A stretch of DNA of 64,000 bases, taken from NCBI RefSeq assembly GCF_009915765.1, contig NZ_JAABLQ010000001.1, positions 1,116,001 to 1,180,000 of the forward strand. Direction: 5' to 3'. Positions 10,680 through 40,131 of the stretch are shown piece by piece. A model generated the notes under the pieces. The model saw only the letters and a program-made list of their open reading frames with translations, had not been told where the DNA came from and ran no database searches. The translations under genes and the position numbers were made by a program. The stretch's first letter is position 1, and each line of letters begins with the position of its first letter. This DNA is from Pannonibacter sp. XCT-53. Lineage in GTDB: Bacteria > Pseudomonadota > Alphaproteobacteria > Rhizobiales > Stappiaceae.

Positions 10680-12494
10680 GTGACCGATGCCGCCGCCGAG
10701 AACCGGACGAAATCCTGGGCCGAGGTTGCCCCGCGCCTTGTCGCGGTTGCGGCGGGTCGGGCGGCGGCGGATCTGGTGATCCGGGGAGGGCGCCTTGTCA
10801 ATGTGCAGAGCCGCGAGATCCTTGACGGCTGGCAGGTGGCGATTGCCGAGGGGCGCTTTGCCTATGTCGGGCCGGACGCCTCGCATTGCATCGGGGAGGG
10901 GACCGAGATCGTCGAGGCCGAGGGGCGCTACCTGATCCCCGGCCTGTGTGACGGCCACATGCACATCGAGAGCGGCATGCTGACGCCGGCAGAGTTCGCC
11001 GCCGCCGTCGCCCCGCATGGCACGACGACGATCTTCCATGACCCGCACGAGATTGCCAATGTGCTGGGGCTGGCGGGTGTGCGCATGATGCATGACGAGG
11101 CCTTGCTGCAGCCGATCAACATCTACACCCAGATGCCCTCCTGCGCGCCCTCGGCGCCGGGGCTGGAGACGACCGGCTTTGCCGTGTCGGCTGCGGATGT
11201 GGCCGAGGCGATGGCCTGGCCCGGGATCATCGGCCTTGGCGAGATGATGAATTATCCCGGCGTCATCCACGGCGATCCGCAGATGCTGGCCGAGATGGCC
11301 GCAACCATGGCGGCGGGCAAGACGGTCGGCGGCCACTACGCAAGTCCTGACCGGGGTATCCCGTTCCACGCCTATGTCGCCGGCGGCCCGGCCGATGACC
11401 ATGAGGGCACGGCGGAGAGCGATGCGGTGGCGCGGGTGCGGCAGGGCATGCGCTCGATGATGCGGCTGGGGTCGGCCTGGTATGACGTGGAAAGCCAGAT
11501 CACGGCGGTGACGCAGAAGGGGCTCGATCCGCGCAACTTCATCCTGTGCACCGACGACTGCCATTCCGGCACGCTGGTGCATGAGGGGCACATGAACCGG
11601 GTGGTGCGCCATGCGATTGCCTGCGGCTGCGACCCGGTGATCGCGCTGCAGATGGCGACGATCAACACGGCGACGCATTTCGGGCTGGAGCGGGAGCTGG
11701 GCTCCATCGCGCCGGGCCGCCGCGCCGACGTGATCCTGACCTCGAGCCTCACCGAGCTGCCGATCGAGGCGGTCTATGCGCGGGGGCAACTGGTGGCCGA
11801 ACACGGCGAGATGCGCGTTGCCTGCCCGCATTACGACTGGCCGCAGTCCGCACGCGAGACGGTGCGCCTTGGCAAGGTGCTGGCCGCGTCCGACTTTGCC
11901 ATTGCCGCGCCGAAGGGCGCCAATGCGGTCAAGGCCAAGGTGATCGGCGTGGTCGAGAACCAGGCGCCGACCAGGGCGCTGACGGCGGAGCTGCCCGTGA
12001 TCGGCGGGCTGGTGGAAGGCGAGAACGGCGTCTGCCAGATCGCGCTGGTCGAGCGGCACCAGGCGACCGGCAAGGTGGTGAACGGCTTCGTCTCCGGCTT
12101 CGGCTACCAGGGCGAGATGGCCATTGCCTCGACCGTTGCCCATGACAGCCACCACATGATCGTCGTCGGCACCAGCCGCGAGATGATGGCCAGGGCGGCC
12201 AATCGCCTTGGTGAGGTCGGCGGCGGCGTGACGGTGTGGAAGGACGGCAAGGAGCTGGCGCTGGTGGAGCTGCCGATTGCGGGACTGATGTCGGACCGGC
12301 CGGCCGCCGAGGTGGCGGCGAAGGCGGCGGCGATGGTGGAGGCGATGGCGGCCTGCGGCTGCAAGCTCAACAACGCCTACATGCAGCATTCGCTGCTGGC
12401 GCTGGTGGTGATCCCGGAGCTCCGGATTTCGGATCTGGGCCTGGTCGATGTGACCCGCTTTGAACTGACCGAGCTGTTCGAGCCGACCGCCTGA
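10680..12494 (+). CDS. ade: Adenine deaminase
   Basis: A 604-residue amidohydrolase of the AdeC type, which converts adenine to hypoxanthine and ammonia for purine salvage. Metal-binding signatures are LCDGHMHIESGM near residue 95, HGTTTIFHDPHEIANV, and CTDDCHSGTLVHEGHM. The C-terminal half has the family-specific SGFGYQGEMAIASTVAHDSHH. A GTG start at 10680 is supported by GGGAG at a normal distance and by family length. The C-P lyase first step releases adenine, so a nearby adenine deaminase may be metabolically fitting; that link is inference. Confidence 0.94.
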   Translation: MTDAAAENRTKSWAEVAPRLVAVAAGRAAADLVIRGGRLVNVQSREILDGWQVAIAEGRFAYVGPDASHCIGEGTEIVEAEGRYLIPGLCDGHMHIESGMLTPAEFAAAVAPHGTTTIFHDPHEIANVLGLAGVRMMHDEALLQPINIYTQMPSCAPSAPGLETTGFAVSAADVAEAMAWPGIIGLGEMMNYPGVIHGDPQMLAEMAATMAAGKTVGGHYASPDRGIPFHAYVAGGPADDHEGTAESDAVARVRQGMRSMMRLGSAWYDVESQITAVTQKGLDPRNFILCTDDCHSGTLVHEGHMNRVVRHAIACGCDPVIALQMATINTATHFGLERELGSIAPGRRADVILTSSLTELPIEAVYARGQLVAEHGEMRVACPHYDWPQSARETVRLGKVLAASDFAIAAPKGANAVKAKVIGVVENQAPTRALTAELPVIGGLVEGENGVCQIALVERHQATGKVVNGFVSGFGYQGEMAIASTVAHDSHHMIVVGTSREMMARAANRLGEVGGGVTVWKDGKELALVELPIAGLMSDRPAAEVAAKAAAMVEAMAACGCKLNNAYMQHSLLALVVIPELRISDLGLVDVTRFELTELFEPTA

Positions 12495-27436: not shown

Positions 27437-27710
27437 CGGGCACTGCCGTGCCGTGCCGCCCGGGCGCTGAATGCCGAGCGCTGAATGCTAAGCACTTAAC
27501 GCCGGCGCTGAACGCAGAACGCCGGCGCTTTCGTTCTCCTCAGCCCCTGCCAGCAACGCCCCGCAAGGGGATCACCGTCCGTTGCCCCGTGCAAGGCAGC
27601 GGACGCCCTGACGATGGCCCGTGACGGCGAGGCGGCGTGCATCCCGTGTTTGCCTGCTCCCATGACGTGTGGCATGGTCGCGGTGGTGTGGTCGTCAACC
27701 GGGTGGGGAC
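27437..27710. other. Noncoding stretch between the aldolase gene and the defence region
   Basis: No gene is supported. It contains two copies of GCCGGCGC about 20 bp apart near 27500-27530, in a run of CGCTGAA-like repeats, and no tRNA-end duplication or integrase. With the hsdR-like scrap it forms the left junction of the Zorya region. Confidence 0.5.
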
Positions 27711-27782
27711 GTGTCGGCAAATTTCGGTCATCTGCAGCAGCTCAGCCCCGAGCTGCATCGCCTCGGTACGCTGGCGGAGCGT
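27711..27782 (+). pseudogene. Remnant resembling the N terminus of a type I restriction subunit (hsdR)
   Basis: From the GTG at 27711 a 24-codon stretch reads SANFGHLQQLSPELHRLG then TLAER, closely resembling the first residues of HsdR-type restriction proteins (NFxFLxxHDPQLxxLGxLAERYF). The similarity stops abruptly at 27782, where the expected continuation is replaced by unrelated sequence, 27 bp before the end of the convergent ASCH gene. Recognition is from memory of the family, and the fragment is short. If right, it marks a deletion or replacement edge. Confidence 0.5.
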
Positions 27783-27808: not shown

Positions 27809-28699
27809 TCAGCGCGCGTCGGAGGCGTCCGGCGTGGATCGGTGTTCGACCCGGACATCGACATGGTACGGGGCGGGGGAGGTGACCACGATCGTGTCGC
27901 CCTCGCGTGCCCCGGAGGCCTCGAAGAAGGAGCGGACCCAGCCGCGCTTGCGGAACAGTCCCTTGGTGCGGTCAATGTCGGACAGGACAGGCGAGGCCCC
28001 GCCCCAGTCGATGACCAACTCCCGTGGCGCTGCGCTGTCCCTGTTGCCCCCGCCGATGCACTCCTGCGGGAACCTGTCCAGAAACTCCCGGATGTAGAAG
28101 TGGCTGTTGCGGAGGTTTCCGCCGGTGAGCGTTGTCCTGCCCAGCAGCTGCGCCGGCCCGTCGGTCGGGGCGCCGGCGGGACGGTCCGCCCCGGGCCGGA
28201 TCGCGGCCGCCGCAACATCCGGCCGGGGCGAGAGCGACGTCATGACAGCAGCATCGACCTTGCGCGTTGCGCGCCAGGCATTCTCCGGGTCGACGCGGCT
28301 GCCGGCCTCGTCCAGGACGCGTGTCAACTGCCCTGCGACGTCGTCGGAGAACTTGACCCAGGTCACCGCGCCGTTCTTGTGCTCATAGGGGACCGGCCGA
28401 TCCAGTTTGCGAACATCCTCCAGTTTCCAGGGAATGACCCACCGCGCGACCTTGCCACTGCGGATCTCGGCCTCCGAAATGCAGTGATGATCATGGGCGG
28501 CGATCATCTCGTCGAGGGTGAGGGCGGGGCCACAGTCGACAAGCCTTGCAAGGCCGACGACCGTGCCGCTTCCCTGCCGGATGAGACCGAACCATCCGCG
28601 CGTTGACGTTTTCTGCGCGCGCATTTCCCAGTCCTTCCGGCCCTGCAGGATGTGCTCGATCCAGGGATCGCGAATGACCAGACCTCGTGTTACCTTCAT
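27809..28699 (-). CDS. ASCH-domain protein with possible B3-like C-terminal domain, linked to Zorya
   Basis: A 296-residue protein. Residues 1-125 form an ASCH domain (PUA-like fold) with the signature G-x-K-x-x-E-x-R at 20-27 (GRKDWEMR) and later ARWVIPWKLEDVRKL. A low-complexity linker follows. Residues about 190-285 (LTGGNLRNSHFYIREFL, DIDRTKGLFRKRGWVRSFFE, REGDTIVVTS) resemble B3/EcoRII-N-type DNA-binding domains in their GWxxFF...GDxxxV ending; this is tentative. It begins 24 bp after the zorD stop with a GGAGAG ribosome site, so it is very likely the fifth gene of the operon. ASCH domains bind nucleic acids, which suggests recognition of phage or modified DNA/RNA. It is not one of the standard Zorya genes. 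Confidence 0.8.
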   Translation of the reverse strand: MKVTRGLVIRDPWIEHILQGRKDWEMRAQKTSTRGWFGLIRQGSGTVVGLARLVDCGPALTLDEMIAAHDHHCISEAEIRSGKVARWVIPWKLEDVRKLDRPVPYEHKNGAVTWVKFSDDVAGQLTRVLDEAGSRVDPENAWRATRKVDAAVMTSLSPRPDVAAAAIRPGADRPAGAPTDGPAQLLGRTTLTGGNLRNSHFYIREFLDRFPQECIGGGNRDSAAPRELVIDWGGASPVLSDIDRTKGLFRKRGWVRSFFEASGAREGDTIVVTSPAPYHVDVRVEHRSTPDASDAR

Positions 28700-28723
28700 T
28701 GCTCAGTCTCTCCAGGGGCAGGA

Positions 28724-31700
28724 TCAGGGCAGTTCCCAGGCGCCGTCCGCGTCCGGGGCCGCGGGGGACAGGCCATCGCGGTGAAACTGTTCGGCCATGC
28801 AGTCCGCAAGGGTGATGCGGCTGCCGCGGGCCGGCGCCACGACAGCCTCGGACAGGCTGGCGACATCGGCGGCGCTGTCGCCCATCGGCCAGAGCGCCTG
28901 CTCCGCCAGCCTGCGCTTGCGCTGCATCAGGCTTTGCAGGAGGAAATCGAAGCTCTGCGCGCCAAGCTCCGGATGCATGGCCATGGGAACATGAACCGCG
29001 ACGGGGCGTGTCTGGCCGATCCGGTGGACACGGTCGTTGCACTGTTCCTCCACGGCCGGGTTCCACCAGCGGGACAGGTGGATGACATGGGTGGCCGCCG
29101 TCAGGGTCAGGCCCGTGCCCGCCGCCTTCGGCCCGAGGATCAGCATGTCAAAGCCGCCGTCGGCCTCAAGGTGCCTCTGGAAGCGGTTCACGATCTCCTG
29201 GCGGCGCGGGATCGGCGTGTCGCCGTTGATGACGTCGATGCGCGCGAGGCCGAAGACATGGCGCACGATCTCGGCGAAGCGGAACTGCATGTCACGATGT
29301 TCGATGAAGACAAGGACCCGTTCGCCGGCCGCCTGGATGCGGTGCAGGATGTCCATGACCGCATCCAGCCGCGCGCTCCTGGCGATGAACTCGTCCGGGC
29401 CCGCAGCGCCGGTGTCGCCGGGATGAACGGAGACGGAGCGAATGTGATGCAGCATCCTGAGGGCCGCGCCGGGCCCGCCGTTTGCCAGCTTGACCTGTGC
29501 AAGGTCATAGGCATCGGCCTGGATCTTCGGCATCAGGCGCGGATGCAGGAAGCGCCGCTTCCGCGGCAGATCACGGGCCACCTCGTCCTTCAGGCGGCGC
29601 AGGCCCAGGGGCGGCAGCGCGTCGCGCGGCCTGAAGATGCGCGCATGCAGCTCCGCCATGGTCCCGGCGTCGGCAACCCCGTAGCGGTCCTTGAACGCGG
29701 CGCCCGAGCCCAGGCATCCCGGTGCGATCCGGTCCATGATCGTCCACAGATCAAGGGCCGAGTTCTCGATCGGGGTTCCGGTCAGGCCGATGCGGAAATC
29801 CGCGTTCATCGCCTCGACGGCCCGGGAGGCCAGCGTCGCCCGGTTCTTGATGTTCTGGATCTCATCCATGACGAGCACGGAGAAGCGGACCTTGCCGAGC
29901 GAATGCTGGTAGTTGGCAAGGGTCGTGTAGGTGGTCAGGATCCAGTAGGTGTGCGCCCGGCCATCCTCGAAGGCCTCTTTCAGCCAGTCCAGATCCAGGT
30001 GAGGCAAGCCCGAGCGTGTCTCGGTGCCGCGCGTGTCGCGCCGCTTCTGCGACCCGAGCGCTGAGCCATAAAGGGGAATGAGCCGGCCAAACCCCCGTCC
30101 CTCGACGTGCTTGGCGACCTCCTGCTCCCAGTTCCGCAAGAGCGAGGTGGGGGCAACGACAAGCACCGGACCGCGGGTCTCGGCGCCCGGATCCTTCATG
30201 TGCTCCTTGACCCAGGCGAGAAAGGCGATGGTCTGCAGTGTCTTGCCGAGCCCCTGTTCGTCAGCGTTCAGAATGCCGGGCAGGCCCGTGCTCCATGCGC
30301 GCGTCGCCCAGTCGAAACTCTCCAGCTGATGCGGCTGCAGCGGGGTCTTGACGGCTGACGGCAGGCGCACCGGGATCGTGGCACGCCGCGGCCGGACGGG
30401 GGCGATGAACCTGAGCTCGTCATAATTGTCCCTTGTCCCGAGGATGAGGGCATCGGACGTCGGGTCCTGCGGGGTCTGGTCATCCTCCGGCCGGGCGGTG
30501 ATCTGTGCCCGTCGGCTGATCTCGCTCTCGATGGCGGCAAGGCGGGCGGGCGTCACGGGAACGCTTTCGCCTGCGATGTCCACCTGTGCCTCTACACCGG
30601 TCTCGAGCGCGCGGGACATGCTCACGCGCAGTTCGCCGAGCCGGGCTTCCGGCATCTGCCGGAGCGCCTCGACCAGATGCTGGGCAAAGGCTTCCGGCAA
30701 CCAGGTCGTGCCGCTGCTTTCGAAGGCGGCATCCGGGCGCTCGTAGCGGACGACGCCGGTGACGCGGTCCGAGTATTCGCGGGTCTCGATCAGGGCCGGA
30801 CCCGCGACGGCTTCCACCAGTTCGGCCTGCTGTGCGTCATCCAGCCCGTCAAGTGCCCCGCTGTCCTGCAGGTGGCGGTTGACGGCATCCGTGATGAACG
30901 CCCGCGGGTTGCGGATGAAGGCATGCCGTTCCTCACGGGGCGCCCGTTGCACGCGGGTCAATTCCGCAAGGACGGGCGCCGCACCCGGGTCAATGACCAG
31001 ATAGGCATTCTTGCCAAGGTGATAGGCGGGCCTTTCACCCAGCGCATGCAGGCGATCCTGAAACACGGCAAGGTCCTCGCCGGTCAGTTCGGCATCCTCC
31101 TCCGAGACATCCGCGTCGGTGCCTGCGCGCTTGAGCCGGTCCGCCGAATACGGCACGATCTCAAACTGCCCCAGCGATTTGTCGGGCGATATCGAAAACC
31201 GGTCCGCGATCCGCACCTCGAGCCCGCGCAGGAAGGCCGTCATCGCCAATCCGGCCCTCTCGCGGTTCTCCGGCATGTCGCCCGTGGCGAACCCGTCCGG
31301 CTCGATGGCGCGGCGGAACTCGCTGAGGGCGCGCCAGTGCTGCTCGACGGGCTGTGACGCGTCAAAGGAATCAGCCAGATCCAGCGCACGCTTCATCCAG
31401 AGTGGCAGCCGGCGTTCGCCTGCGCCCGTCTTCAGGATGGCACCGATGCGGATGGGCACCTCGCGGCGGCCCTGGCGGGACCATTCATAAGAGAGTTTGA
31501 AATCCGGGCGGCCGAGGACGCCGGTCACGTCGGTCTTGAGCAACAGGTCGACCGTTCGTGGCAATCCGATTGCCTCGGCAGAGGCCGACGAGAGGCTCGC
31601 CGCCGCGTCATGGGACAACCGGATGTGGTCGGCTGCAATGGTCACATCGCCCGGGTGCCTGTCCTCCCAGGCCCGCAGGTCCCCGAGGGCGAAGAGCAGG

Positions 31701-31843
31701 TCACGGTCGTCCGGTGCGAGGTCGGTGAAGCTGCGGCTGCTGCGCTTCGGCATCAGGCGGGAGAAGAGGGTCGTCTTCTCCGGCGGAAAGCGGATCTCGA
31801 TTGCATCCGCGGAGACCGAGCAAAGGGGCCTGGCGTCAGACAT
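28724..31843 (-). CDS. zorD: Zorya type I helicase/nuclease component ZorD (SNF2 family)
   Basis: A 1039-residue SNF2-type ATPase. Motif I is DEQGLGKTLQTIAFL near residue 530, motif II VLVMDEIQNIKN near 658, motif III GLTGTPIENSALDLW, and the C-terminal motifs are AAGTGLTLTAATHVIHL and CNDRVHRIGQTRPV near 940. The N-terminal 500 residues have no motif I can name. In Zorya, ZorD is the effector that degrades invading DNA after the membrane motor is triggered. Its ATG lies within the end of zorC (8-bp overlap). Confidence 0.88.
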   Translation of the reverse strand: MSDARPLCSVSADAIEIRFPPEKTTLFSRLMPKRSSRSFTDLAPDDRDLLFALGDLRAWEDRHPGDVTIAADHIRLSHDAAASLSSASAEAIGLPRTVDLLLKTDVTGVLGRPDFKLSYEWSRQGRREVPIRIGAILKTGAGERRLPLWMKRALDLADSFDASQPVEQHWRALSEFRRAIEPDGFATGDMPENRERAGLAMTAFLRGLEVRIADRFSISPDKSLGQFEIVPYSADRLKRAGTDADVSEEDAELTGEDLAVFQDRLHALGERPAYHLGKNAYLVIDPGAAPVLAELTRVQRAPREERHAFIRNPRAFITDAVNRHLQDSGALDGLDDAQQAELVEAVAGPALIETREYSDRVTGVVRYERPDAAFESSGTTWLPEAFAQHLVEALRQMPEARLGELRVSMSRALETGVEAQVDIAGESVPVTPARLAAIESEISRRAQITARPEDDQTPQDPTSDALILGTRDNYDELRFIAPVRPRRATIPVRLPSAVKTPLQPHQLESFDWATRAWSTGLPGILNADEQGLGKTLQTIAFLAWVKEHMKDPGAETRGPVLVVAPTSLLRNWEQEVAKHVEGRGFGRLIPLYGSALGSQKRRDTRGTETRSGLPHLDLDWLKEAFEDGRAHTYWILTTYTTLANYQHSLGKVRFSVLVMDEIQNIKNRATLASRAVEAMNADFRIGLTGTPIENSALDLWTIMDRIAPGCLGSGAAFKDRYGVADAGTMAELHARIFRPRDALPPLGLRRLKDEVARDLPRKRRFLHPRLMPKIQADAYDLAQVKLANGGPGAALRMLHHIRSVSVHPGDTGAAGPDEFIARSARLDAVMDILHRIQAAGERVLVFIEHRDMQFRFAEIVRHVFGLARIDVINGDTPIPRRQEIVNRFQRHLEADGGFDMLILGPKAAGTGLTLTAATHVIHLSRWWNPAVEEQCNDRVHRIGQTRPVAVHVPMAMHPELGAQSFDFLLQSLMQRKRRLAEQALWPMGDSAADVASLSEAVVAPARGSRITLADCMAEQFHRDGLSPAAPDADGAWELP

Positions 31844-33173
31844 TTTGATGCACCCATTGGGACCAGTTTTCTATGGAATTGTGCGCCTTCCAGACCTTCG
31901 ACTGGCGCATGATCTCGTCGCAGTGGTACTCCCGTTGGTAGAGTTTCGGGGCCTGCCGGTCGTCGATGCGGAAGATGTGGGTGCGATAGCTGTGGCACCC
32001 GTCCACCACGATCCTGTTGCCGATCCGCATGATCAGGAGGGAGGTCTTGCCGCCACGATCCTTCTGACGGCCGAAGCGGCGGCTCATGTCCGTGCCTTCT
32101 GTCTTCACCAGGTGCCGCCTGGCGTATTGCAGCGCGTCCGTGTCGAACGCCACCCAGGCTTCGTCGATCTTGCCGTCGTCATAGAGCTGGAGCCAGAAGT
32201 CCCTGCGAGGCGGCCACATGTGGCTCGGCTGCGTCGCCGTGACGACGTCACAGAAGAACTTCATGTCCTGGTGTGTCAGCCAGCGCAGCAGGATCGACTT
32301 CAGGTCCGGATCGAAGCCCGGCCAGATCCCGCCCGCATGCAGCCGGGGATCGTTCCAGCAGCCGATGATGCGTTCGGTCAGTTCGTTGCGCAGGGCGTCC
32401 GGCGGCGTGCGATTTTTCCAGACGGCGAGGACGGCCTCGATGGCGGCGCCTGCACCGACCTCGAGCACCGGCCCCGCCTCCGGTGCCAGCCAGTTGAAGA
32501 GTTTTGCCCGTGCATCGGGTCTTGCGAGATCAGGCGCCAGACGCTCCACGAAGATCTTGTGGGCCGCCCGCGTCAGGCCGGACGTGTGCGGGCTGCTGAT
32601 GCCGATCGATTTCAGCGCCTCGTAAGGATGCTCCGCGCCGACCATGACGCTCGCAAGATCCCGGGGCGCTGCCTCCGGCTGAAACAGCGTGGGAAGCGTG
32701 TCGACCAGCCTCCGGTATCTGCCGCCGAGGTCAGCCGCTCTCTTGCGCAGCCCCTCTGCCAGACGGTGTGTGTGGAGGGCCCCGGGCACAAAGCTGTCAA
32801 GGTAGACACGGGCCATCCCGTCAAGAAACGGGCCGGGCCCGCGGGTCTCGAGTTCGGCCAGATAAAAGCTGCGGACAGGCTCGAGGTCAGGGCGCATCCG
32901 TCGCTCATCATCGAAAACGGCGAGAGCTGCCGAGATGACCTTCTGGGTCGTGATCTTGTCCCAGCTCCAGGTCCGGACCCGATGAAGCATGTTCAGGGCG
33001 AGCGTTTCCCGATCCTGGTCGGCAGGTGCGCTGACCATGTCCGGCCAGCGGGAGGTGATCTTCCGGACGGACTTGGCCAGCGGGTCAAGCGAGGAAAACG
33101 CCCGGACGCGCATCGGAGCGAGCCGCCCGAGCAGCGCGCGCGCACCGTCGGACGCAGCAGGGACATCGTTCAA
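31836..33173 (-). CDS. zorC: Zorya type I component ZorC (EH-signature domain)
   Basis: A 445-residue protein that in type I Zorya is a DNA-binding component acting with ZorD. The C-terminal half fits the EH-signature domain: ERIIGCWNDPRLHAGG, SILLRWLTHQDMKFFCDVV, MWPPRRDFWLQLYDDG, then VDGCHSYRTHIFRIDD and HNSIENWSQWVHQNV. No enzyme motif is seen. It overlaps zorB by 4 bp at its start (ATGA) and zorD by 8 bp at its end. The presence of this gene rather than zorE defines type I. Confidence 0.87.
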   Translation of the reverse strand: MNDVPAASDGARALLGRLAPMRVRAFSSLDPLAKSVRKITSRWPDMVSAPADQDRETLALNMLHRVRTWSWDKITTQKVISAALAVFDDERRMRPDLEPVRSFYLAELETRGPGPFLDGMARVYLDSFVPGALHTHRLAEGLRKRAADLGGRYRRLVDTLPTLFQPEAAPRDLASVMVGAEHPYEALKSIGISSPHTSGLTRAAHKIFVERLAPDLARPDARAKLFNWLAPEAGPVLEVGAGAAIEAVLAVWKNRTPPDALRNELTERIIGCWNDPRLHAGGIWPGFDPDLKSILLRWLTHQDMKFFCDVVTATQPSHMWPPRRDFWLQLYDDGKIDEAWVAFDTDALQYARRHLVKTEGTDMSRRFGRQKDRGGKTSLLIMRIGNRIVVDGCHSYRTHIFRIDDRQAPKLYQREYHCDEIMRQSKVWKAHNSIENWSQWVHQNV

Positions 33174-34117
33174 GGCTGTCCTCCTCCGGCCTTGAGCGCG
33201 CTGCGGATGCCGCTGATTGCATCGGTGTCCGGAGGTGTCACCATGATGAAGCGAAGGTCGATGCGACGGTTGGTGGACCTGCCCTCGGGCGTGTCGTTCG
33301 TGGTCACGGGCCGGTCAGGACCGTAGGCGGCAACCGACAGAACCGGCTGGCCCTTGAGGTTCTGATGCTGCATGACGCGGTCGGCTGCTTTGGTCATGGC
33401 AAAGAACGTGTTGTTCGCGCGCGCGGCAGACAGGTTCCGGTTCCGCCGGTCCGATCCCATGGTGTCGGTATGGCCTTCGATCTGGACCGCCTCGACCATG
33501 GCAAAGGATGGATTGCACTTCACGTCGAAACGCGAGGCGGCCCCGATGGTGAAACAAGGGAGTATCTCGTCCAGTCGCTCGGCGAGTTTCGAGACGATTG
33601 CCGACTTCTCCGGCGTCAGCTTCGGACTGTTGGATGCGAACAACCCTTCGCCCTGGAAGCGTAAGGCATCGCTTTCTTCGCTCAGTTCGACCTTGAGATC
33701 CGGAAAGTCGACAAGGATCGCGTCGCGCAGGCGTTCCAGGACCTCGCGCCGGGCGACGGCCACCTGCGACAGATACTCCTCGAGCGGGTCGGCGATCTTC
33801 AGCCGGTCGAGTTTCTCCCGCAAGTCCGCGATTTCCTCATCCTTTTCCTCGATCTCGGACTTGAGCGCGGCAATCTCCTCCTCAAGGACCCGGATCTTCT
33901 CAGCCTGGCTCTCGGCACGTGCCTTCTGCTCGTCGCGCTGTTTGACCATGTCGTCGTAAAGGCTCGTGGGCACGGTCGATGTCTCGCGCGCCTGGCTGGC
34001 GAAGAACGCCAGCAGGATCATCATGATGAACAGGAACCCGACCGTCATGTCGGTCATCGAGACAAAGGCGCTTTCCTCGTCTTCCTCGTGCCGCGCTCGT
34101 CTTGCGTGGGCTCTCAT
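33170..34117 (-). CDS. zorB: Zorya motor component ZorB (MotB/OmpA-like)
   Basis: A 315-residue protein with a single N-terminal membrane helix bearing an ion-carrying aspartate (D23 in SMTDMTVGFLFIMMILL), a charged coiled coil (about 60-110, rich in Glu/Lys), and a C-terminal OmpA-like peptidoglycan-binding domain (IEGHTDTMGSD, LSAARANNTFF, GRSTNRRIDLRF). This is the layout of MotB/ZorB stators. Cysteines at about 187 and 200 may form a periplasmic disulfide. Overlaps zorA and zorC by 4 bp each. Confidence 0.93.
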   Translation of the reverse strand: MRAHARRARHEEDEESAFVSMTDMTVGFLFIMMILLAFFASQARETSTVPTSLYDDMVKQRDEQKARAESQAEKIRVLEEEIAALKSEIEEKDEEIADLREKLDRLKIADPLEEYLSQVAVARREVLERLRDAILVDFPDLKVELSEESDALRFQGEGLFASNSPKLTPEKSAIVSKLAERLDEILPCFTIGAASRFDVKCNPSFAMVEAVQIEGHTDTMGSDRRNRNLSAARANNTFFAMTKAADRVMQHQNLKGQPVLSVAAYGPDRPVTTNDTPEGRSTNRRIDLRFIMVTPPDTDAISGIRSALKAGGGQP

Positions 34118-36201
34118 GTCCTGACCCGCTTCTGGTGGGGCATGAACTGTTCGGCCTGAGCAACGACTTCATGCAAGGTGGTGATGCCCGGTTCCAGTGT
34201 CTTCTGGATCAGGGCCACGTGATCCTGTGCAGTGCCGAGGGCCGCCTCCAGCTGCGTGCTGTACTCCTTGAGTGCGCGCCCCAGCATCTGGTCGATCCCG
34301 TCGAGTTTCTCCGCCTCGCTCGACAGCTGCGCGATGGCGACGCGCGTCGCTTCCAGGTTCCTGCGAATGCCCTCGCGCTCGGTGCCAAGGGCCGTCCTTG
34401 CGCTCTCGAGCACATGCGCGGCGTTCTCGGCCACAGTCGCAGAGTTCTGCATCAGGGTTTCGGAGACGGTCTCGACCAGGTCCCCCACGCGACGCAGGGT
34501 TGTCTCGATGCGCTCATGTGACGCCCGGACCGGATCGGCTGCCGCGCTGAGCGTCAGGCCTGCGGCCCGGAAGCCTTCGGACGCACCGTGGATCGCGTCG
34601 GCGCCGCTGTTCAGGCCCAGGGCCGCGCTCTGTGCGCCGGACGCGCCGCGTTGCACGGCGTCGGCCATCTCCGACAGCCGGGTCGCGATCTCCTCAAGCC
34701 GCGACAGGAGTTTCGCGCCGATGACCTCGCCCATCTCGCTGCCAAGTCTGGCAATGTCCTGGCTGGTCTGGCCGAAGCTGTGGAGCAGGGCGCGCCCGGC
34801 CCCGGCGATGGCCTGGCCGGCTTCCTCCGTCGAGGCGGCCATGCGCTGCCTGGCGGCTTCCGCGCTCTCCTTACTGGCATTGTCGAGCGTTTGGCGGAAG
34901 TTGTCGGCTGCCTGTTTCATCTCGTCAGCCGCCGCGCGCATGGCTTCAGCGCCTTGCCCCGTGTTGTCGCGGATGCCGGCCAGGGTCTCGTTCATGACGG
35001 AGAGCAGACGCTCTGCCCCTTCGTTCATGGTTTCAGACGCGGCACGGCCGCTGGCCGAAACTTCGGACCGCATCTCCGCCAGCGCCCTTGCCATCTGGTC
35101 GAGGGCCTCACGCAAGCCGTCGCCCGCCTGGGTGTTGGCACCGCTCATCCGGTCCACCATCAGGCCGATCCGGTCTGTCGCCTCGCCGAGAGATTCGCTC
35201 GCCCGTCGCAGGGCATTGCCGACGGAGTGGGACAATTGCTGGGACAGGTCGCCCACCAGCCCTTCCATGCTGCTGGTGCCGAGGGAGGTGACCCGTTCAA
35301 AGATCGGATCCATCTTGCTCGAGATGGCACTCGTGATGGCATCTGGCAGCGCGTCCAGCGGTTCCCGCAACTGGGCGACGAGGCTGGTGCCGAGTGTCTG
35401 CAGGTGAGCGCGCTGCTCGCGTGTCTCGCGCAGCTGGCGCATCGCGACATCTTCCAGGCTCAGGAAGCTCAGGCGTGCCTCGAGGCTGGAACACAGGTGG
35501 TGCAGGGCGTCTTCGATCTGGCTTTGCCGTTTCCGGAGAATCAGCGTGAAGAGGATTGAACAGAACAGACCGGCCAATGACATGACGAACTTCGCCGAGG
35601 CGATCTGCATGAAGCCATACATGGCGCTGTTCATGCTGTCGGAGGCCCCGTTTATGCTCTGCGAGAACTGATGCAAGGCTGCAACCAGTCCGAGGAACGT
35701 CAGCAGGAGACCGGCAGATACGAGCGTGTTCGGAAGGACGCGGAAAAAGCCCGGACCAAACCCGAGGTCGTCAACGTTCAGGAACGAGGCCGGGCGGACC
35801 GGGTTGCGCAACCGGAGCGGGCCGTCAATGTCGTCACGGACGATCGTTTCGTCGAATTCGGAAAACGCCTGCCAGACGGCCCGGTGAGCGCTGGACGCCT
35901 GGAAATCGGTCTGCAGGCCGGCCGTGAAGTCGTTGTATCCCTCTGCAAAGGCCGTAGGATCCGCATGCTGGCGCACGCGGCCGTCGAGATCCCGGATTGC
36001 CCGCAGCTGGGACCCTGACCTTGCCAGATACCGGAGACTGGCTATGGCCGTCAGCAGCAGGAACAGCGCGGCGCAATACCCCGGCGCGCTTTCCTGAAGC
36101 GTCAAGACTTCCGCCAGGGCGATGATGCCGTCTTTCAGCATCAGGCCCGGATCACCACTGCCTGTGACTTGCAAGGCTGTCTCCTGCCGGTTCGGTCGCA
36201 T
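34114..36201 (-). CDS. zorA: Zorya motor component ZorA (MotA/ExbB-like with long tail)
   Basis: A 695-residue membrane protein. Hydrophobic segments lie near 40-60, 155-177 (LVSAGLLLTFLGLVAALHQF) and 203-222, the last two forming the MotA/TolQ/ExbB channel core. From about 225 to the end runs a long helical tail with heptad-like Ala/Glu-rich repeats (EMKQAADNFRQTL, SETLMQNSATVAENA). Such a long intracellular tail is what relays the signal in type I Zorya. First gene of the operon. The ATG at 36201 follows an inverted repeat in the leader. Confidence 0.92.
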   Translation of the reverse strand: MRPNRQETALQVTGSGDPGLMLKDGIIALAEVLTLQESAPGYCAALFLLLTAIASLRYLARSGSQLRAIRDLDGRVRQHADPTAFAEGYNDFTAGLQTDFQASSAHRAVWQAFSEFDETIVRDDIDGPLRLRNPVRPASFLNVDDLGFGPGFFRVLPNTLVSAGLLLTFLGLVAALHQFSQSINGASDSMNSAMYGFMQIASAKFVMSLAGLFCSILFTLILRKRQSQIEDALHHLCSSLEARLSFLSLEDVAMRQLRETREQRAHLQTLGTSLVAQLREPLDALPDAITSAISSKMDPIFERVTSLGTSSMEGLVGDLSQQLSHSVGNALRRASESLGEATDRIGLMVDRMSGANTQAGDGLREALDQMARALAEMRSEVSASGRAASETMNEGAERLLSVMNETLAGIRDNTGQGAEAMRAAADEMKQAADNFRQTLDNASKESAEAARQRMAASTEEAGQAIAGAGRALLHSFGQTSQDIARLGSEMGEVIGAKLLSRLEEIATRLSEMADAVQRGASGAQSAALGLNSGADAIHGASEGFRAAGLTLSAAADPVRASHERIETTLRRVGDLVETVSETLMQNSATVAENAAHVLESARTALGTEREGIRRNLEATRVAIAQLSSEAEKLDGIDQMLGRALKEYSTQLEAALGTAQDHVALIQKTLEPGITTLHEVVAQAEQFMPHQKRVRT

Positions 36202-36861
36202 TCACTCACGTCAAGGATGCAGGCGGCCGGCTCGCCTGCGGGCCGCATCCTGACGTCAAGCCCCTGTTTCAGTTCACGATCTCTGAGATATGCCTTCTGG
36301 GTCAACGAAGGTGGTATCGCAGATCCTGCAACCGTTTGTAAGTGGAGGGTGAGCTGTTGCCAAGCGGGATTGACGGGTCCGGTGGCGGATCCGCGCCGTC
36401 TGATGTCCCTGTCACGACTACGGAGGGGCGACGGCTGTCGAAGACCGGTTGAGGTCAACCATCCGGTGCCGGTGACGGGAGCGATGACGGGCACCGATGA
36501 CGGATGCCGATGATGCGCGAGGCGTCCGGCGCAGGCGTTGGAGGGCTGGATGTTGGTGATGCGGACGCGAGGGTGTCGGACTGTCGGCTGCCGGGACCGG
36601 CTGTGGTCGCCAGTGAACGCCGGACCGACCTGCCGGTCTCACCGCGTCCTGACGCTGGCGGCAGGATTGCCGGCGCAGCACCGCGGGGCTGCATCCTTTC
36701 CCGCCACATTCAGCCCTTTGCAGCCGGTCGCCGGTTGCGGCATCCATGAGAGCCGCGATGCAACGAAGGGGTGCACGACGTCGGGCAAGGCAATGGAGCG
36801 CGAGGCACCAAGAGGTAAGGCCTGTTGCTCGTCAAAAGTGCCGGTGATGTCTGGAAGAGGC
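36202..36861. other. Noncoding region between zorA and tRNA-Gln
   Basis: About 660 bp without a supported gene. It must carry the zor promoter. Close to zorA, an imperfect inverted repeat ACGTCAAGGATGC (36208-36220) and GCATCCTGACGT (36245-36256) could be an operator or leader hairpin. Further out are degenerate GATGACGG-type repeats near 36475-36515. No integrase, recombination site or duplicated tRNA end was found. Confidence 0.55.
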
Positions 36862-36935
36862 TGGCTGGGGAACCTGGATTCGAACCAGGACTAACGGAGT
36901 CAGAGTCCGCGGGTCTACCGTTAACCTATTCCCCA
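36862..36935 (-). tRNA. tRNA-Gln (anticodon CTG)
   Basis: On the minus strand the acceptor TGGGGAA pairs with TTCCCCA, then discriminator G and an encoded CCA. The anticodon stem-loop GCGGA-CTCTGAC-TCCGT gives anticodon CTG (first stem pair is a G-T wobble). The T arm CCTGG-TTCGAAT-CCAGG is perfect. Length 74 nt with CCA. It reads CAG codons. It lies about 660 bp from zorA, a typical neighbour of acquired DNA, although no duplicated 3' end was found. Confidence 0.95.
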
Positions 36936-37139: not shown

Positions 37140-37323
37140 TTGGGATGGGGCCTGATGCGGGGGCTGATGCATGGCCTGGTGAGGGGGGGCAGGAGAGGGG
37201 GCGCCGAGGCTTCCTTTGCGTGCAAGGGGGCAACCTGTTACACTTTCTCCAACATCAAGGATCGGGCGCGCCCGGAGGATCCTGCAAGGGGTCTGCGAGC
37301 GGCAGCGCATAAAGGACATCGAA

Positions 37324-40131
37324 GTGGACGACACGGGTCAGGACGCCCCCCGCGCAGGGAAGGGGCAGACTGATGCGGCGTCGCCTCCCGCTGCCGCCGC
37401 GTCGCGGCGCGCACGCGCGAAGAAGCGCCGCAGGCAGGCCAAGGGCCCGTCCGGGGGCGCGCCAGCCGGTGGCTCTGCCGCCGGCGGTCGGGGAGGCGAA
37501 TCCGGTGCCATGGCACCGCGGCAGCCGGCAGATGCGCCGGAGGCCCCGCGTCAGGTGCAGCAACAGGCGCAAGACAGAGCGCAGGGCAAGCCGCACAACG
37601 GTTCGCATGACGGGCCGCATGACGGGCCGCACGACGGTTCGCATGACGGGTCGCACGGTTGGGCCCGCGACTGGGCGCATGGCCTGGTGCGCGATGGCGT
37701 GCGGGACGGTTCGCGTGACAGTGGGCACGCCGGCGCGCGCAGTGGGGCGCACAACGAGGCGCACACTAGGGCGCATGACGGGACGCCAGACCGGGTGCAG
37801 GCCCCCGTCCCGGGATCCGGCAACGGGTCCGCGAAGGGGGCTGAAACTGGCTCTGGCACCGGATCTGGGCTTGGCTCTGGCACCGGATCCGGGCCGGGAT
37901 CTGGTCAGCAGTCTGGTCGGCTCTCTGGCCAGAATGCCGGCCCGGAGGCGGGCAGGACGCCCGGCCGCACGAGAGGTCGGGCGAAGGGCCGGACGGGGAC
38001 CCGCAGCGAGGGCCGGCATGACGGCCGAACTGCGAATCGGTCTGCGGATCGGGCTTACGGGCTGACCGGGGGCCAGGCAGGGGCCGAGGCCCAGGCTGCC
38101 GGGGCGACAAGGGTCCACGCTCAGACGGACAGGGCCCAGACGGACAGGGCTCATACGGATAAGGCTTTGGCGGCTCAGGCTCAGGCTCGTGATCAGGCTC
38201 CGGCAGGTCAGGTGCGGGGGCAAGGCGGGCCCGCGTCCGCGCATCAGGGTCAGGCGGCTGGCCAGAAGAAAGGCAAGCGACGTCAGCGTCCGAATCGGGC
38301 AGAGCGTCGCGCCGACCTGCAGGGTGAACCGCTGCCGAGCCTCGGCAGCGATCCGGCGCGCAAGGGCCATCGCCGGCGCGGCGCACACCGCTCCGGCCGC
38401 AACCGTCACTCCGAGGCTCTTCCCGGAAACCTGACCGGAAACCGGGCTGGTCATGAGGCCGGAACAGCAGCCGGAGCAGAAGCCGGAGCAGGGGCAGGGG
38501 CATTCTCTGGCGTGCCGGCCGGGCCGGCCGGCAACAGCACGGCCCAGCGCAGCGTCGGTCTTCCCGAAGCCCGCAGCTGGTCCGGGAGCGAAGTCCGCGC
38601 TGGTGGGGCTGCCGATGCACACGCCGGTGAGCCGTCTGGTGACCGTTACGGTGAACTGTCTGGAGCACTGTCTGGAGCACTGTCCGGGGTCTGGCCCCGG
38701 CCAGCCGGGGATCCGGGGACCCGGGACACGGCCGAGGCGCCGCTCCGCTCCGATGACCTGTCGGGAGACCGTCGCAGCGGCGGCGAGTACCCGTCCGCTC
38801 TTGAGGCGTCCGGACCTGACGCGTCCGGATCGGAAACCTCTGGTCATGAGCTGGCGGGGCGTGATCGTCCGGCTGATCCGGGTCAGGCCGGGCTGGGTCA
38901 GGCGGGCGAAGGTCTCCCTGGCGAGGGCCGCCGGCGGCGTGGACGCGGGGGGCAGGGACGGAGTGGCCAGGGCTGGGGCGCACAGGGCTGGGGCGCACAG
39001 GGAAAGGGCGGACGTGACGGCCACGGGCCGGCAGGTCCTGCCTTGCCGGGTCCTGCCGTGTCGGGTCATGACCGGCAGGCGGCCGCGCGCAACGAGCGCG
39101 GGCCGGCACATCCGCTGTATGCGGCGCTGGATCTTGGCACCAACAACTGCCGCCTGCTGATCGCCCGCCCGGAAGAGCGCGGCTTCAAGGTGGTCGATGC
39201 CTACTCGCGGATCGTCCGTCTGGGCGAGGGCGTCGGCGCCAGCCGCCGGCTGTCCGACGCGGCCATGGAGCGGGCGATCGAGGCGCTGGACAGCTGTCAG
39301 CGCAAGCTGGCCGAGCGCGGCGTGCTGCGCGCGCGCCTGATTGCGACCGAGGCCTGCCGGGCGGCCGACAACGGTCCGGACTTCATCGAGCGGGTGCGCC
39401 GGGAGACCGGGCTGGCGCTGGAAATCGTCAACCGCGAGACCGAGGCGCGGCTGGCCGTGGCCGGCTGCGCGTCACTGGTGGACCGGGACGCGGAAGGGGT
39501 GCTGCTGTTCGACATCGGCGGCGGCTCGTCGGAGATCGTCTGGCTCGACCTGCGCAACCGGGGCTCGGCCCGCGGCTATGCGCTCACCCGCTTCATCCGG
39601 GCCTGGACCTCGCTGCCGGTCGGGGTGGTCAATCTCGCCGAACGCCACGGCGGCATGCATGTCTCGCCCGAGATCTTCGAGGCGATGGTGGGCGACGTTG
39701 CGGCCCATCTCGACAGCTTTGCCGTGGGCACGGCGCTTGGCGAGGCGATTGCCGCCGGGCGCGTGCACATGCTGGGCACATCGGGCACGGTGACCACGCT
39801 GGCGGGGGTGCATTTCGGCCTGCGCCGCTATGACCGGCGACGTGTCGACGGGGCCTGGCTTGCCGACGAGGACGTGTCGGCGATGATCGAGAAGCTGCGC
39901 GGCATGTCCTATGACGAGCGCGTCGGCAACCCCTGCATCGGCGCGGACCGGGCGGACCTGGTGCTGGCGGGCTGTGCCATCCTGGAGGCGATCCGCCGCC
40001 GCTGGTCCTGCTCGCGCCTGCGCGTCGCCGACCGGGGCCTGCGCGAGGGCATCCTGACTGAACTCATGTCCGCGGACGGCGTCTGGTCGCGCGGCAGCCG
40101 GCCCCATCGGGGGCAGAAAGGAAAGACATGA
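37324..40131 (+). CDS. Ppx/GppA exopolyphosphatase-family protein with ~595-residue repetitive N-terminal extension
   Basis: A 935-residue protein. Residues about 595-935 are a normal Ppx/GppA domain: [69 protein letters not shown] and [16 protein letters not shown]. Such enzymes hydrolyse polyphosphate or pppGpp. The first ~595 residues are low-complexity, rich in Gly, Ala, Arg, Asp, His and Ser. They include a basic segment ([14 protein letters not shown]) and HDG(P/S), GTGSG and AQTDR repeats, so probably disordered. The GTG at 37324 has AGGA seven bases upstream. Homologues next to rlmE usually have much shorter leaders. The stop overlaps rlmE by 4 bp. Confidence 0.88.
37592..37651 (+). 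repeat. 12-bp tandem repeat in the ppx extension (five units)
   Basis: Five 12-bp units of the type CGCATGACGGGC encode HDGP/HDGS repeats (first unit HNGS). Degenerate copies continue downstream, and other short-unit runs lie near 37845-37905 (Gly-Ser-Thr) and 38115-38165 ([15 protein letters not shown]). All unit lengths are multiples of three. Confidence 0.9.

What the first reader, a model, noticed from the sequence alone, without database searches (positions are those of the whole stretch)
27809..36201. Type I Zorya operon with a fifth, ASCH-domain gene
Seen: zorA, zorB, zorC and zorD overlap each other by 4-8 bp, and 24 bp after zorD, with its own ribosome site, comes a 296-residue protein. 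Its N-terminal ASCH domain (G20-K22-E25-R27) is joined to a C-terminal part that looks like a B3/EcoRII-N-type DNA-binding domain. Known: type I Zorya is described as a four-gene system with a membrane motor, ZorC and the nuclease ZorD. Inference: the fifth gene may add a nucleic-acid sensor, for example for modified phage DNA, or a regulator of ZorD. This is the best candidate for an undescribed system in the window.
Basis: partly seen in the sequence, partly recalled or inferred. Interest (0 to 1): 0.78.

Follow-up and report, generated by a model that had tools for sequence, protein, structure and literature searches.

The report
Portable DNA-reader gene on Zorya operon
Directly behind the four genes of a known bacterial anti-phage system (type I Zorya) lies a fifth gene whose relatives also sit beside the helicase genes of unrelated defence systems; its protein is predicted to join two nucleic-acid-binding folds and likely helps the defence nuclease recognise phage DNA, a role not yet tested.

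Summary
zorA-zorD (minus strand, 36201-28724) match type I Zorya models, and 24 nt behind zorD lies a 296-aa gene. Predicted structures support both readings of its protein: an N-terminal ASCH fold and a C-terminal B3-type DNA-binding fold, joined by a low-confidence linker. It is a real family: 259 homologues, and 53 ASCH-B3 loci among the best 80 found by sequence alone. Of the 53, 22 lie with type I Zorya (17 directly 3' of zorD), 16 with Hma/DUF499 systems, 4 with type III restriction-like genes and 11 elsewhere. The gene tree requires several moves between systems. It is not a fixed Zorya component: in a survey by zorC, 2 of 61 zorD genes have it directly 3', and 2 of the 5 surveyed zorD genes closest to this one. 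So it is a portable accessory, not a new Zorya subtype. Comparison with congeners suggests that the five genes fill one exchanged block at a tRNA-Gln hotspot. Most likely role (inferred, untested): a DNA reader that targets or licenses the neighbouring SNF2 helicase-nuclease, possibly on modified phage DNA. I found no paper linking ASCH to Zorya in the library searched.

The parts
34114..36201 (-). zorA, 695 aa, motor stator subunit
   Evidence: PADLOC ZorA1 792 bits
33170..34117 (-). zorB, 315 aa, OmpA/MotB-like subunit
   Evidence: PADLOC ZorB1 379 bits; Pfam OmpA 47 bits
31836..33173 (-). zorC, 445 aa, EH_Signature protein (TTG start)
   Evidence: PADLOC ZorC1 517 bits; Pfam PF15611 186 bits
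28724..31843 (-). zorD, 1039 aa, SNF2-type helicase; the PADLOC model is described as SWI2/SNF2 helicase with Mrr-like nuclease
   Evidence: PADLOC ZorD1 1249 bits; Pfam SNF2-rel_dom 137.5 and Helicase_C 58.7 bits, no nuclease family in Pfam
27809..28699 (-). fifth gene, 296 aa, ASCH-B3 accessory
   Evidence: 259 homologues; 53 ASCH-B3 loci; dN/dS 0.08-0.33 in 11 of 12 pairs
28295..28699 (-). ASCH domain, residues 1-135, motif G20-K22-E25-R27
28160..28294 (-). low-confidence linker, residues 136-180
   Evidence: Mean pLDDT 38-64 in the ten-residue blocks over residues 131-180
27830..28159 (-). B3-type DNA-binding domain, residues 181-290
   Evidence: Model of the domain alone, pLDDT 92.8; the best 25 PDB rows are all B3-like domains
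28708..28713 (-). GGAGAG, ribosome-binding-site-like, upstream of the fifth gene
   Evidence: Sequence
27635..27781 (+). 147-bp stretch 93% identical to the start (34 bp of leader plus about 38 codons) of a type I hsdR gene of a congener; likely marks one border of the exchanged block
36862..36935 (-). tRNA-Gln (ctg); similarity to four congeners stops at its 3' end, the likely other border

Best explanation
The fifth gene encodes a portable accessory protein, predicted to join an ASCH fold to a B3-type DNA-binding fold, that likely acts as a DNA reader for the SNF2-type helicase-nuclease ZorD encoded directly before it. Proposed order of events: phage injection activates the ZorAB motor, which brings ZorC and ZorD to the entering DNA (from the literature); the B3 domain then docks on DNA while the ASCH cleft probes bases, modified or flipped ones by analogy with other PUA/ASCH-superfamily readers; the bound protein targets or licenses ZorD on that DNA. 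Shown here: the genes, their neighbourhoods, the predicted folds, purifying selection, and a gene tree that requires repeated moves between systems. Inferred: DNA binding, base reading, contact with ZorD, and whether the effect is to activate ZorD on phage DNA or to restrain it on host DNA.
For: Of 53 ASCH-B3 relatives found by sequence alone, 22 lie with type I Zorya, 16 with Hma and 4 with type III restriction-like genes. In all three the usual slot is directly 3' of the helicase gene: 17 of 22 for zorD (24 nt in the window and in L002, L003, L009, L010, L011), 15 of 15 loci that hold hmaA (a 4-nt overlap in 14, 31 nt in L048), and 3 of 4 for the Res-like gene (overlaps of 4, 4 and 1 nt). 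Gene tree: starred branches force at least 6 changes of the Zorya label, and holding the Zorya rows together is rejected (p-AU 4e-82). ASCH genes without B3 also follow divergent zorD genes (L068, L070, L071, L081) and lie between hmaA and hmaB (L073, L075). In some Hma loci ASCH and B3 are two adjacent genes (L220; Bradyrhizobium plasmid L247), which suggests that the two domains act together. Both folds have DNA-bound solved members among the matches: TRIP4 ASCH-dsDNA and B3-DNA complexes. Paper passages: EVE, a PUA/ASCH-superfamily modified-base reader, recurs with a COG1743-DUF499-SNF2-nuclease operon in archaea, and ASCH is fused to HsdS in some type I restriction systems (PMC7641849); ASCH/PUA modules are called readers in a type-2 BR (DUF499) system (PMC12839542); an ASCH-like barrel of a phage-defence glycosylase is predicted to bind DNA with a flipped 5hmC (PMC13160076).
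Against: No binding, complex or phage data exist. Most surveyed type I Zorya lack the gene: 2 of 61 zorD genes have it directly 3', and close relatives of this system lack it (L200, zorD 77% identical). In three loci it is convergent with zorD (L041, L043, L054), in one it lies 5' of zorA (L053), and in 11 of 53 loci none of the three systems was recognised, so strict co-expression with such a helicase is not required. Some ASCH proteins are enzymes (YqfB, ZmASCH), so catalysis is not excluded.
Confidence: 0.48

Rival explanations
1. Restraint: the protein keeps ZorD (or HmaA) off host DNA, binding host marks or the nuclease itself, and so lowers the cost of the system.
For: A paper passage suggests that type I Zorya can damage host DNA (PMC11890865). 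Hma and the type III-like loci carry methyltransferase genes that could write a mark.
Against: No methyltransferase gene belongs to the Zorya operon, and close zorABCD systems persist without the gene.
Confidence: 0.17
2. Enzyme: the ASCH domain hydrolyses a modified base or cuts nucleic acid, and B3 brings it to DNA; it strips phage DNA modifications so that ZorD can act, or is itself an effector.
Against: In both alignments YqfB T24, recalled as catalytic, aligns with E25, so that triad is not kept; the profile alignment is weak (probability 7.6%).
Confidence: 0.13
3. Transcription regulator: B3 binds an operon promoter and ASCH senses a ligand, tuning expression of the defence genes.
Against: 11 of 16 Hma loci already hold a gene of the WYL cluster by hmaA (the WYL name rests on one member). 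The gene lies at the 3' end of the Zorya operon and in three loci is convergent with it.
Confidence: 0.12
4. Independent passenger: a small defence or selfish gene that merely shares defence islands.
For: 11 of 53 loci have none of the three systems recognised (in L025 WYL- and HmaA-like fragments lie nearby, and L018 is cut by a contig end); ASCH-only relatives occur in 20 Vibrio phage records and on plasmids.
Against: The same slot, spacing and orientation recur in different systems, and ASCH and B3 stay adjacent even as separate genes.
Confidence: 0.1

Closest known systems
Type I Zorya (ZorABCD)
   Same: All four proteins match PADLOC type I models, in operon order A-B-C-D.
   Different: Described as four proteins (passage of PMC12904381); here a fifth gene follows zorD.
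Hma (HmaABC), also called DUF499-centred BREX-related (BR) systems
   Same: hmaA is directly followed by the same ASCH-B3 family in 15 loci here.
   Different: Partners are a methyltransferase and a DUF499 ATPase, not a membrane motor. The passages I saw report EVE beside such operons in archaea and ASCH/PUA fused to DUF3780 in type-2 BR, not ASCH-B3.
EVE-type modified-base readers in modification-dependent restriction
   Same: PUA/ASCH superfamily; recur beside helicase-nuclease defence genes.
   Different: EVE is a different domain family; no modified-base binding has been shown for ASCH-B3.
B3-like recognition domains of restriction enzymes (LlaJI.R1, BfiI, NgoAVII, EcoRII-N)
   Different: There B3 is part of a restriction enzyme; here it is joined to ASCH in a separate protein. 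Sequence identity is 8-15%.
TTHA0113 (PDB 2dp9) and other solo ASCH proteins
   Different: No B3 domain (124 residues); the entry title gives no function.

Membership tests
Type I Zorya | ZorA and ZorB motor proteins | tested here: met
   PADLOC ZorA1 792 and ZorB1 379 bits
Type I Zorya | ZorC (EH_Signature) and ZorD (SNF2 helicase) in the same operon | tested here: met
   ZorC1 517, ZorD1 1249 bits; overlapping genes
Type I Zorya | Anti-phage activity | not testable with these tools
   Needs phage challenge
New five-gene Zorya subtype | Fifth gene kept in the clade of this zorABCD | tested here: not met
   2 of 5 surveyed zorD at 1600 bits or more have it; 2 of 61 surveyed zorD overall directly 3'
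ASCH superfamily | Signature GxKxxExR | tested here: met
   G20, K22, E25, R27; each 90% or more conserved in 37 rows, R27 invariant
ASCH superfamily | Pfam PF04266 gathering score | tested here: not met
   19.5 against 21.2 bits; a relative, L218, passes with 22.5
ASCH superfamily | ASCH/PUA-like fold | tested here: met
B3-like DNA-binding domains | B3 fold in the C-terminal domain | tested here: met
B3-like DNA-binding domains | Binds DNA | not testable with these tools
   Needs a binding assay
YqfB-type ac4C amidohydrolases | Catalytic Lys-Thr-Glu (recalled as K21-T24-E74) | tested here: inconclusive
   K22 matches K21, but T24 aligns with E25; weak profile alignment
Modified-base readers (EVE/YTH/ASCH) | Binds a modified base | not testable with these tools
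   Fold and context only

The most novel reading that the evidence does not exclude
ASCH-B3 is a general plug-in specificity subunit for SNF2-type and related defence helicase-nucleases: it docks on DNA through B3, inspects bases through ASCH, and gives systems as different as the Zorya motor, Hma and type III restriction a shared, swappable way to recognise modified phage DNA; in Zorya it would add DNA content to a trigger described so far as membrane perturbation.
Probability: 0.25. Interest if true: 0.82.

Novelty: new variant of a known kind. Interest (0 to 1): 0.6.

Why it matters
A review passage lists membrane perturbation as the Zorya trigger. An accessory that reads DNA would add a second check. 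Because the gene tree has the same module joining Zorya more than once, and because it also sits with Hma and type III-like genes, one experiment could reveal a shared principle: helicase-nuclease defences borrow interchangeable DNA readers. It also gives a compact set of natural variants (ASCH alone, ASCH-B3, ASCH with another C-terminal part, split ASCH and B3 genes) in which that idea can be tested directly.

Tried and rejected
Rejected: a new Zorya subtype, because close relatives lack the gene. Rejected: chance neighbours. With a zorC hit in 32 of 397 genomes of the order and about 4000 genes per genome (assumed), about 0.002 of 53 relatives would be expected next to a zorD; 17 lie directly 3' of one.

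Led nowhere: the pattern search of viral contigs gave no relative (one search repeated it by mistake). Promoter and terminator scans of the operon gave no more than shuffles. None of the 20 direct-repeat families shown (of 22) links the tRNA to the far end of the block. The 3' neighbours of zorD in loci without ASCH were listed but not scanned for other readers. No ASCH remnant stood out behind zorD in seven ASCH-less loci; the best hits were 87 aa at E 5e-4 in L200 and 27 aa at E 7e-4 in L236. PDB sequence search gave three matches up to E 1, of which only 1wk2 and 2dp9 stand out. Pfam has no convincing family for the B3 part: the most frequent match, in 5 of 44 members, is StcE_b-sandwich (best E 9e-6; 0.047 for the window), which I take for a shared beta-rich pattern. 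Papers: 'Zorya' with 'ASCH' gave 4 papers; in PMC12458937 ASCH occurs only in a reference title, in PMC12505986 the match is an author name, and the other two, on seagrass and barley, I judged from the listing. 'ASCH', 'B3 domain', 'restriction endonuclease' gave none. The main structural paper on type I Zorya is not held; what I say of the motor comes from passages of PMC12904381 and PMC11890865.

Limits: the zorD tree is a quick one without bootstrap, and 25 of its 29 ASCH-positive rows were found through ASCH. The 80 loci are the best 80 of 93. Of the 53, L018 is cut by a contig end, L005 has ASCH and B3 on two ORFs, and L006 and L009 show zorD without the rest of the operon. 'Directly 3'' for L034-L036 rests on tblastn, as the longest-ORF starts run back into zorD. 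L025 was counted as 'elsewhere' although WYL- and HmaA-like fragments are near. The second AU test named its group after the tree was seen, and L043, L048 and L054 are long branches. The pair L009-L010 was too alike for dN/dS. Eight genomes with only partial zorC hits (7 of 37, 1 of 32) were not fetched.
Full report
OBSERVATION. PADLOC type I models match all four Zorya proteins strongly. The fifth protein has no PADLOC or NCBIfam hit. Its Pfam ASCH match is just under the curated cut-off (19.5 against 21.2 bits), but the motif G20-K22-E25-R27 is present and each residue is 90% or more conserved in 37 aligned relatives.

A FAMILY, AND WHERE IT SITS. Protein search gave 259 homologues; the 120 listed, other than the window's own, are 41-63% identical to the query. 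A scan of one genome per GTDB species, by sequence alone, gave 93 relatives; the best 80 loci were kept. Of these, 53 carry ASCH and B3. By neighbourhood, 22 of the 53 lie with type I Zorya: 17 directly 3' of zorD (within about 130 nt), 3 convergent with zorD, 1 just 5' of zorA, 1 four kilobases from zorD. Sixteen lie with Hma (order WYL, hmaA, ASCH-B3, hmaB, hmaC where complete), 4 with a ResIII-like gene and a type III methyltransferase, and 11 elsewhere. The spacing repeats: 24 nt after zorD in the window, L002, L003, L009, L010 and L011; a 4-nt overlap with hmaA in 14 of 15 loci that hold hmaA. Among loci that match only the ASCH part, four more follow divergent zorD genes (L068, L070, L071, L081), L074 lies near a weak zorA match, L073 and L075 lie between hmaA and hmaB, and L067 follows a type III methyltransferase gene. 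Several ASCH proteins have a different C-terminal part instead of B3. In L220 and on a Bradyrhizobium plasmid (L247), ASCH and B3 are separate neighbouring genes inside Hma.

NOT A FIXED COMPONENT. To avoid bias I searched whole genomes for zorC and looked at what follows zorD: 37 of 398 genomes of the phylum sample, 13 of 385 of the class, 32 of 397 of the window's order and 12 of 390 of the order around one relative have zorC hits (the window's genome is in the first three, and the relative, chosen for its ASCH gene, in the last). I fetched 77 regions (36 phylum/class, 30 order, 11 second order; window and seed relative left out). Of these, 61 hold zorD with at least 500 bp behind it, 12 had no zorD hit and 4 were too short. 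Eight genomes with only partial zorC hits were not fetched. ASCH lies directly 3' of zorD in 2 of 61 (both in the second order, 2 of 11), and elsewhere in the region in two more (L142, 5' of zorA; L130/L218, about 3 kb 5' of zorA). Of the five surveyed zorD genes closest to this one (1600 bits or more), 2 have the gene; the nearest on the tree, L200 (77% identical), does not. On the zorD tree starred branches force at least 16 changes of ASCH presence (quick tree, and 25 of 29 positive rows were found through ASCH).

MOVES BETWEEN SYSTEMS. On the ASCH-B3 tree, starred branches force at least 6 changes of the Zorya label and 4 of Hma. Holding all 24 Zorya rows together is rejected (p-AU 4e-82), as is joining the two main Zorya clades, a group named after the tree was seen (p 5e-57). 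The Rhizobium Zorya clade lies among Hma rows, with support under the star threshold for that placement. The gene is under purifying selection: dN/dS 0.08-0.33 in 11 of 12 pairs, Zorya-linked and Hma-linked.

ONE BLOCK. In four congeners the similarity to the window stops at the 3' end of tRNA-Gln (window 36852-36862). In one of them the same hotspot holds a type I restriction system (HsdR, HsdM and HsdS families), whose hsdR start is 93% identical over 147 bp to window 27635-27781; that stretch is single-copy in the window's genome. It ends 27 bp from the end of the fifth gene. I infer that the incoming block ran from about 27782 to the tRNA and holds the five genes and no other recognised gene; the exact ends are not proven.

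MECHANISM. Passages describe type I Zorya as a ZorAB motor that recruits ZorC and ZorD to entering phage DNA (PMC12904381; PMC11890865). A PUA/ASCH-superfamily reader (EVE) recurs beside a methyltransferase-DUF499-SNF2 nuclease operon in archaea (PMC7641849); ASCH is called modified-DNA-binding in another defence context (PMC10853773), and ASCH/PUA modules are named as readers in a type-2 BR system (PMC12839542). With the recurring slot behind helicase genes and two nucleic-acid-binding folds, the best-supported role is a DNA reader for the helicase-nuclease. Whether it reads modified bases, and whether it activates or restrains, is inference. Rivals (restraint, enzyme, regulator, passenger) stay open and are listed with tests.

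NOVELTY. I found no report of an ASCH gene with Zorya in the library searched (listings, with passages of PMC12458937, PMC12505986, PMC8565338, PMC11890865 and PMC12904381 read). Related reader-helicase pairings are published, so I call this a new variant of a known kind.

Noticed in passing
window 36862-36935; L261-L264: tRNA-Gln (ctg) looks like an integration hotspot: in 4 of 4 congeners similarity to the window stops at its 3' end, and one carries a type I restriction system there.
   Followed up: partly
window 27635-27781: Remnant of the start of an hsdR gene beside the fifth gene, 93% identical to a congener's locus, single-copy in this genome.
   Followed up: partly
L062-L064, L068, L080, L081: ASCH proteins with another C-terminal part in place of B3; in L063, L064, L068, L080 and L081 it shares a motif like GEKG.E..F..Y..A...L..M....W.RPN..GNWGIVS. 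L068 and L081 follow zorD directly.
   Followed up: no
L245 (Vibrio phage 1.122.A), L246 and 18 other phage records: ASCH-only relatives are carried by 20 Vibrio phage records; in one the gene lies about 1.3 kb from a C5 cytosine methylase gene.
   Followed up: partly
L007, L046, L049, L052, L058, L077, L080: Other large defence-like neighbours of ASCH genes: SMC/AAA-like proteins, a UvrD-type helicase, a ResIII-type helicase with a weak PLD match, AIPR, HsdR-like and DEAD-MZB helicases.
   Followed up: no
Piscirickettsia salmonis plasmids, hits H22-H30: An ASCH-like match (31% identity) lies under genes annotated as Druantia DruA.
   Followed up: no
L219 (G278), 10749-11072: A lone B3-domain gene, about 10 kb upstream of the zorA of a type I Zorya without a nearby ASCH gene.
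   Followed up: no
window 37216-40131: A 971-aa ORF whose C-terminal third is conserved in congeners (86-90% identity) while the N-terminal part is glycine/arginine-rich and repeat-like.
   Followed up: no
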